This document shows, piece after piece, positions 32,603 through 33,886 of a stretch of DNA of 64,000 bases. The DNA is from Rhizobium sp. Q54 (GTDB lineage: Bacteria; Pseudomonadota; Alphaproteobacteria; Rhizobiales; Aestuariivirgaceae). The translations under genes were made by a program, and so were the position numbers. The stretch's first letter is position 1. Each line of letters begins with the position of its first letter. Location of the stretch: NCBI GenBank assembly GCA_945889445.1, contig CAMDBX010000006.1, forward strand, positions 24,293-88,292, written 5' to 3'. The notes under the pieces were generated by a model, which had not been told where the DNA came from, did no database searches, and worked only from the letters and a program-made list of their open reading frames with translations.

Positions 32603-32629
32603 GGACGCTTTCCGTCACACGGAACTCAT

Positions 32630-32661
32630 CATGCCCGGGCTCGTCCCGGGCTTCTTTTTTG
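32630..32661 (+). terminator. Rho-independent terminator of pyk
   Basis: catgcccgggctcgtcccgggcttcttttttg. Confidence 0.8.
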
Positions 32662-32741: not shown

Positions 32742-32902
32742 CGTGCACGACACGCGCCGGAGACATGCATCGCTCACTACCTCTAAAATGGAGAGTCACA
32801 CAATCTTTGCTTGTTTTCGGTTGATCTTCCGGCTAGCTTTCTTACGCTACGTCATACCGTGCGGCATCTTTCCACACAACCCATTGAAACAATGAGGATA
32901 TC

Positions 32903-33322
32903 ATGGAACAGAAAGCTTATCTTCAGAACAAGCTCGAGGAGCTGACGCGCGAGCAGCTCATCGTGAAGTCCCAGCTTGATCGTGAGCGCCTGGTCACCAT
33001 CACCGGCAATCTCATCGATACCATCACCTCCCCGAAGTTCATCGAAAACATGCGCCAGTTCAGGGAGCGCGCTGCCAAGGGCGCCAGCTTCGAGGAAGCG
33101 GGCGATCTCATGTCGCTGGAAAGCCTGCGTGCTGCGGGCGCCGACATTCCAAAGGACTTCCGGCTCACCAGCCGGGTCTTCGAAGACCGCGAGACCGGCT
33201 TCAAGATCGAAATCAAGCCACCGCGCGGCATCGACGACGACGGCATGGGTCGGGTGGCATGGGGCGCCTGTGCCGGTGGCGGCGCGGCAACGGTCTGCGG
33301 CTGTGCTGGTGGCTCCACCTGA
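32903..33322 (+). CDS. hypothetical protein with Cys/Gly-rich C-terminal tail (possible RiPP-like precursor)
   Basis: 139 aa; helical Lys/Glu-rich N-terminus and C-terminal ...GMGRVAWGACAGGGAATVCGCAGGST. Confidence 0.75.
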   Translation: MEQKAYLQNKLEELTREQLIVKSQLDRERLVTITGNLIDTITSPKFIENMRQFRERAAKGASFEEAGDLMSLESLRAAGADIPKDFRLTSRVFEDRETGFKIEIKPPRGIDDDGMGRVAWGACAGGGAATVCGCAGGST

Positions 33323-33364
33323 TCCGTCTGGTCTTCAGTCAGAGGCTATAGAGAGGAGAGACAG

Positions 33365-33838
33365 ATGAGCGAGAGTGAAGCCGCAACTGCGGCCTACAGT
33401 CACCTGGCCTATTCGCAGTCCGATCTGCAGCAGGTCATGCGGGAGCACTACGCGAAGATCATTGATTTCGTGACGTCGCCTCCGTTCAAGGCTCTCATGC
33501 TGGAGATGTCGGCAATGAGCCATATGGAACGCCCCGGCTTCGTGGCAGACGTACTCCTGGATGATGGCGAACTCGAGCGGCGCGGCGTTGTCGTGCCGGA
33601 CGGGATACTCCTTCAGCGATCGGCCTTCGGAGATCGCAGGCCAACCTTGTTCGCGGTGAAGCATTTCCTGCCCGAAGGCTTCAACGACGTCTGGCAGAAC
33701 GTGAACATCACCTTCGACAATGAGTACCTCGACGAGGCGGTGCCGCGGTCGCGGGATGTCTGCTGGCGCCCGCCGCTGGAGCCTGCCCACCAGGCCTTGG
33801 CGATGGCGCGCAATATTCCGCTCGAGCAGCAGCCTTAG
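33365..33838 (+). CDS. hypothetical protein, probable distant paralogue of the preceding ORF
   Basis: Shared layout: LIDTITSPKFIENMRQF / IIDFVTSPPFKALMLEM and LRAAGADIPKDFRLTSRVFED / LERRGVVVPDGILLQRSAFGD. Confidence 0.7.
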   Translation: MSESEAATAAYSHLAYSQSDLQQVMREHYAKIIDFVTSPPFKALMLEMSAMSHMERPGFVADVLLDDGELERRGVVVPDGILLQRSAFGDRRPTLFAVKHFLPEGFNDVWQNVNITFDNEYLDEAVPRSRDVCWRPPLEPAHQALAMARNIPLEQQP

Positions 33839-33860
33839 CTGCACCACACATGAAGTCGGT

Positions 33861-33886
33861 CATGCCCGGGCGCGTACCGGGCATGA
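33861..33886 (+). terminator. hairpin after the 32.9-33.8 kb gene pair
   Basis: catgcccgggcgcgtaccgggcatga; inverted repeat, short T run after. Confidence 0.5.

What the first reader, a model, noticed from the sequence alone, without database searches (positions are those of the whole stretch)
32903..33838. Tandem paralogous small proteins, one ending in a Cys/Gly-rich RiPP-like tail
The first protein has a charged, helical leader-like body and ends in WGACAGGGAATVCGCAGGST (C-x8-C-x-C within Gly/Ala), typical of a modified or metal-binding core peptide. The second appears to be a distant paralogue without that tail. They form a small transcription unit bounded by hairpins. No known RiPP-modifying enzyme (YcaO, radical SAM, LanM) is encoded nearby, so any maturase would act in trans. 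I recognise no described family.
Basis: inference. Interest (0 to 1): 0.65.

Follow-up and report, generated by a model that had tools for sequence, protein, structure and literature searches.

The report
Mobile gene pair with conserved cysteine tail
Two neighbouring small genes, one encoding a protein that ends in a strictly conserved cysteine/glycine tail, form an undescribed and rare two-gene unit found in at least three bacterial phyla, often close to the packaging genes of phages; its function is not yet known.

Summary
Window 32903-33322 (A, 139 aa) and 33365-33838 (B, 157 aa) are tandem paralogues, and A alone carries the Cys/Gly tail. Neither has a credible match in Pfam, NCBIfam or the PDB; family-wide scans of PHROGs, NCBIfam (A) and PADLOC (B) found nothing convincing. 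I found the same pair at 11 further independent loci: Alphaproteobacteria, Streptomyces, Hymenobacter, and phage or provirus contigs; a cyanobacterial MAG has B alone. In all A proteins every cysteine lies in the tail, C-x3-G-x(3-7)-C-x3-G, which follows a linker of 25 to 91 residues: a leader/core-like layout. A and B form separate clades and co-vary. They are the only genes shared by three or more loci, so no maturase, transporter or protease travels with them. YcaO is absent from all 11 genomes tested; the window's genome also lacks MNIO, LanC-like and SPASM hits. In four phage/prophage contexts the pair lies close to packaging genes. It is best read as an autonomous mobile module: A an effector with a functional Cys tail, B its dedicated leader-like partner. 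The RiPP idea survives as architecture only; no known RiPP class is supported. Function is inferred, not shown.

The parts
32633..32651 (+). terminator-like hairpin after pyruvate kinase; upstream boundary of the unit
32760..32789 (+). weak sigma-70-like promoter match upstream of A (not evidence of function)
   Evidence: 9 of 12, one found against 0.4 expected
32903..33322 (+). gene A: 139 aa, helical cysteine-free N-terminal domain, linker, Cys/Gly tail
33146..33187 (+). conserved A motif P-x2-[FM]-R-x-[ST]-[ST]-R-x-F-E (IPKDFRLTSRVFED)
   Evidence: P83, R87, R91, F93, E94 invariant
33257..33319 (+). A tail AWGACAGGGAATVCGCAGGST; conserved C-x3-G-x(3-7)-C-x3-G
33365..33838 (+). gene B: 157 aa, paralogue of the N-terminal domain of A, no Cys tail; motif QRSAFGDRRPTLF
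33860..33886 (+). perfect 10-bp inverted repeat (TCATGCCCGG/CCGGGCATGA, 7-base loop), downstream boundary
   Evidence: read from sequence

Best explanation
A and B are an autonomous two-gene accessory module spread by phages, plasmids and integration events. They descend from one old duplication of a small helical domain. A is an effector-type protein: a cysteine-free leader-like domain, a flexible linker and a C-terminal Cys/Gly block that is the functional end. B keeps the domain but has lost or never had the tail; its strongly conserved QRSxFxDxRPTLF stretch suggests that it is a dedicated partner of A (chaperone, escort or immunity-like). Since no maturase or exporter travels with the pair, the tail most likely acts unmodified, as a disulfide, or after processing by a widespread host enzyme. 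Shown: paralogy, tail conservation, Cys restricted to the tail, co-inheritance, autonomy, phage/plasmid carriage. Inferred: that the tail is the effector, that B binds A, and any effect on a cell or phage.
For: Tail pattern C-x3-G-x(3-7)-C-x3-G in 13 of 13 A proteins examined, with no cysteine elsewhere apart from one two residues before the motif in L021. The linker between the conserved FE and the first motif Cys varies from 25 to 91 residues while the tail stays. Tail under purifying selection: L016 v L018 6 synonymous and 0 non-synonymous differences in 20 codons, against 39 non-synonymous in the 121 codons before it. A and B each one clade (100/100); A and B distances correlate, r 0.82, permutation p 0.0005. 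A and B are the only families shared by three or more of 13 neighbourhoods; the other clusters of that size are antisense shadows of A or B. Close to terminase/portal genes in L023/L024, L028, L029 and to a terminase-like gene pair in L025; on a 15-kb plasmid in Hymenobacter; by a tRNA and integrase or recombinase in L016 and L015. Sporadic: in 69 genomes of the family and about 400 each of the order and class only the window genome itself has it.
Against: No experiment and no functional homologue. The A tail and linker have low AlphaFold confidence (pLDDT below 50), so the predicted hairpin is unproven. A cyanobacterial MAG carries B without a neighbouring A (L020). A tail this conserved could bind metal rather than act as an effector. 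No A-B complex was modelled.
Confidence: 0.4

Rival explanations
1. A is a RiPP precursor whose Cys tail is modified in trans by a maturase encoded elsewhere; B is a second chain or a leader-like helper, as in tandem NHLP-Burk precursors.
For: Leader/linker/core-like layout and Cys only in the tail. Tandem paired leaders with one Cys-ending chain are known from Burkholderia (TIGR03795; PMC2887384).
Against: YcaO 0 of 11 genomes; MNIO 6 of 11, LanC-like 1 of 11, SPASM 6 of 11, all absent from the window genome. No shared neighbour gene. No profile similarity to the TIGR03795-type domains. Radical SAM enzymes without SPASM, flavin decarboxylases and unknown maturases were not tested.
Confidence: 0.2
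2. Toxin/antitoxin-like or anti-phage (superinfection) module: A is the toxic or sensing part through its tail, B neutralises or licenses it.
For: Two small genes in one orientation, overlapping (ATGA) in L014; sporadic, on phages and a plasmid, close to packaging genes in four phage contexts.
Against: No match of B to PADLOC; A was not scanned there. Toxin and antitoxin that are paralogues of each other would be unusual. Nothing shows toxicity.
Confidence: 0.2
3. A and B form a heterodimer in which the conserved tail cysteines bind a metal or redox cofactor; a regulator or sensor rather than a secreted or toxic peptide.
For: Two invariant Cys, and often a third (Cys, or Ser in the Streptomyces and some phage members) two residues after one of them.
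Against: Cys spacing varies (7 to 11 residues between the two) and L013, L014, L015 and Hymenobacter have only two Cys; no His/Asp partners conserved in the tail.
Confidence: 0.15

Closest known systems
NHLP-Burk two-chain precursors (TIGR03795, Haft et al. 2010, PMC2887384)
   Same: Tandem pair of paralogous leader-like proteins, one chain ending in cysteine
   Different: Those sit near a cyclodehydratase-docking (YcaO-type) gene (paper); ours have no YcaO in the whole genome, no profile similarity, and a longer conserved Cys/Gly tail
Nitrile-hydratase-like leader peptides (NHLP, TIGR03793) / proteusin precursors
   Same: Long helical leader with a D/S-P-x-F stretch and an L-x3-G-x3-P turn, then a short Cys-containing C-terminus (resemblance by eye only)
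   Different: No NCBIfam hit, no clear Gly-Gly processing motif, no associated transporter or maturase
Phage moron / toxin-antitoxin pairs
   Same: Compact two-gene unit close to phage packaging genes or on a plasmid, sporadic
   Different: No match to any scanned family; the two partners are paralogues of each other

Membership tests
TOMM / YcaO-dependent RiPP | YcaO cyclodehydratase in the genome | tested here: not met
   PF02624 in 0 of 11 genomes carrying the module; control genomes ring
MNIO (DUF692) RiPP | MNIO enzyme in every genome with the precursor | tested here: not met
   PF05114 in 6 of 11, absent from the window genome, never among the shared neighbours
Lanthipeptide with LanC-like cyclase | LanC-like domain in the genome | tested here: not met
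   PF05147 only in the Streptomyces genome
Radical SAM-SPASM peptides | SPASM-domain radical SAM enzyme | tested here: not met
   PF13186 in 6 of 11, absent from the window genome; radical SAM enzymes without SPASM not tested
RiPP precursor in general | leader-like part plus conserved C-terminal core-like block holding the modifiable residues | tested here: met
RiPP precursor in general | post-translational modification and leader removal | not testable with these tools
   needs mass spectrometry
NHLP-Burk (TIGR03795) | profile match to the family | tested here: not met
   no NCBIfam hit; hhalign with TIGR03795-type domains E 0.24-0.71
Nitrile hydratase alpha fold | structural match of the domain | tested here: inconclusive
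   B model pLDDT 84, no PDB hit with E below 0.001 and no nitrile hydratase among the listed hits; A model too poor to search
Toxin-antitoxin | toxicity of one partner, neutralised by the other | not testable with these tools
   needs expression tests

The most novel reading that the evidence does not exclude
A phage-spread two-gene system of a kind not described: a leader/core-like protein with a conserved Cys-x3-Gly...Cys-x3-Gly tail and a tail-less paralogue as dedicated partner, working without any dedicated maturase, exporter or protease across at least three bacterial phyla.
Probability: 0.4. Interest if true: 0.8.

Novelty: new variant of a known kind. Interest (0 to 1): 0.6.

Why it matters
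It is an undescribed, rare but deeply conserved protein-family pair that phages and plasmids carry as cargo, often close to packaging genes. A strictly conserved Cys tail kept across at least three phyla without a travelling maturase points to an unmodified (or host-modified) peptide function, so it makes a compact test case for whether a leader/core-like layout always implies RiPP chemistry. The conserved motifs (QRSxFxDxRPTLF in B, the C-x3-G tail in A) make the family findable from now on.

Tried and rejected
Close relatives: no orthologue in 69 genomes of the family or about 400 each of the order and class. First genome-collection and viral scans with A alone found nothing. Weak hits in three genomes of the phylum were judged chance after reading (one looks like trigger factor, one like a PEP-utilising enzyme, one an unrelated small ORF; these names are from memory, not from a family search). 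The Bradyrhizobium plasmid hits (E 0.2) were dropped. Known RiPP maturases as universal companions were tested and not met. PDB sequence profile hits to calmodulin (E 0.02 or worse) and to BCL6/CopG are not credible. Fold search of B in PDB and BFVD gave no significant match. The CPBP protease next to the Hymenobacter pair occurs at one locus only, after a hairpin, so it is not treated as part of the module. Two literature searches for the motifs and for orphan precursors on prophages found nothing.

Full report
Observation. A ends in AWGACAGGGAATVCGCAGGST and has no cysteine outside that tail. A and B are paralogues: BLASTP E 4e-4, and profile against profile 97% probability, E 1e-10. Flanking hairpins are present (for the upstream one; the downstream 10-bp stem at 33860-33886 is read). 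Neither protein matches Pfam or NCBIfam; scans of all members find nothing convincing in PHROGs, NCBIfam for A or PADLOC for B.

Relatives. B first hit a Hymenobacter monticola plasmid, where the gene crosses the record start and is not in the listed annotation; directly upstream lies an A-type gene with its own Cys tail. An alignment of these two B proteins found pairs in two IMG/VR contigs, and a four-member alignment found ten loci in 84,980 species: Streptomyces alfalfae, Rhodophyticola, Boseongicola, Oricola, Rhodothalassium, several alphaproteobacterial MAGs and a cyanobacterial MAG. A third viral contig came later. Nine of those ten genome loci carry A directly before B; the cyanobacterial MAG has B alone. 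Counting near-identical loci once (L016/L017, L023/L024), the pair stands at 11 independent places besides the window. It is very rare: in 69 genomes of the window's own family and in about 400 each of its order and class, only the window genome has it.

Anatomy. In A the N-terminal part is helical and free of cysteine, with invariant L75, G79, P83, R87, R91, F93, E94; then comes a linker of 25 to 91 residues; then the tail C-x3-G-x(3-7)-C-x3-G, in Alphaproteobacteria CAGGGAATVCGCAG or CACGGAATVCGGAG, in Streptomyces CASVGYIVCASVG. In the close trio L016/L017/L018 the tail changes only synonymously (6 v 0 between L016 and L018), while the preceding part takes 39 non-synonymous changes. AlphaFold gives the helices of A fair confidence but the linker and tail none. 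B is predicted well (pLDDT 84: mostly helices, then three strands), with the motif QRSxFxDxRPTLF, and matches nothing significant in PDB or BFVD.

History. On a joint tree A and B are each one clade with full support, so one duplication preceded the spread; pairwise distances in A and B correlate (r 0.82, permutation p 0.0005), as expected of a pair passed on together. Comparing all ORFs of 13 neighbourhoods, A and B are the only families shared by three or more loci, apart from antisense shadows of the same genes. The pair lies close to terminase and portal genes in L023/L024, L028 and L029 and near a terminase-like gene pair in L025 whose large subunit has no Pfam match; it is beside a tRNA and an integrase in L016 and in the region of a tRNA and a serine recombinase in L015, and on a plasmid in Hymenobacter.

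RiPP question. But the enzymes it would need are not there: YcaO in 0 of 11 genomes, MNIO in 6, LanC-like in 1, SPASM in 6, and none of the four in the window genome. Several of the other ten genomes are incomplete MAGs, so absence there is weaker evidence than in the window genome. Enzymes outside these four families were not searched. The closest organisational parallel, the tandem NHLP-Burk precursors (PMC2887384), is linked to a cyclodehydratase and shows no profile similarity here.

Conclusion. An undescribed, autonomous, phage- and plasmid-carried pair: A with a functional Cys tail, B a dedicated leader-like partner. That A is the effector and B its partner is inference (confidence about 0.4). 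It is filed as a new variant of leader/core-type modules, because no experiment yet separates it from that kind; the stronger claim, a new kind of system, is kept as the novel case.

Noticed in passing
L003:15035-15253 and 1-104 (NZ_CP094539.1): Hymenobacter B gene crosses the start of the circular plasmid record and is missing from the listed annotation; a CPBP (CAAX-type) protease gene starts about 100 bases later, after a hairpin.
   Followed up: partly
L020:7338-7784: Cyanobacterial MAG with B but no A next to it; whether A lies elsewhere in that genome was not searched.
   Followed up: no
L045:1354-1845: A different leader-type protein ending in PFPCAKCWNGCC directly before a gene that looks YcaO-like (by eye): a possible TOMM precursor below the TIGR03795 cut-off.
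   Followed up: no
window 32629-32651 and 33860-33886: The two hairpins that bound the unit share the sequence TCATGCCCGGG; perhaps a common terminator-type repeat of this genome.
   Followed up: no
L028:11426-11502: tRNA-Met gene between the A/B pair and the HNH-terminase genes of a provirus.
   Followed up: no
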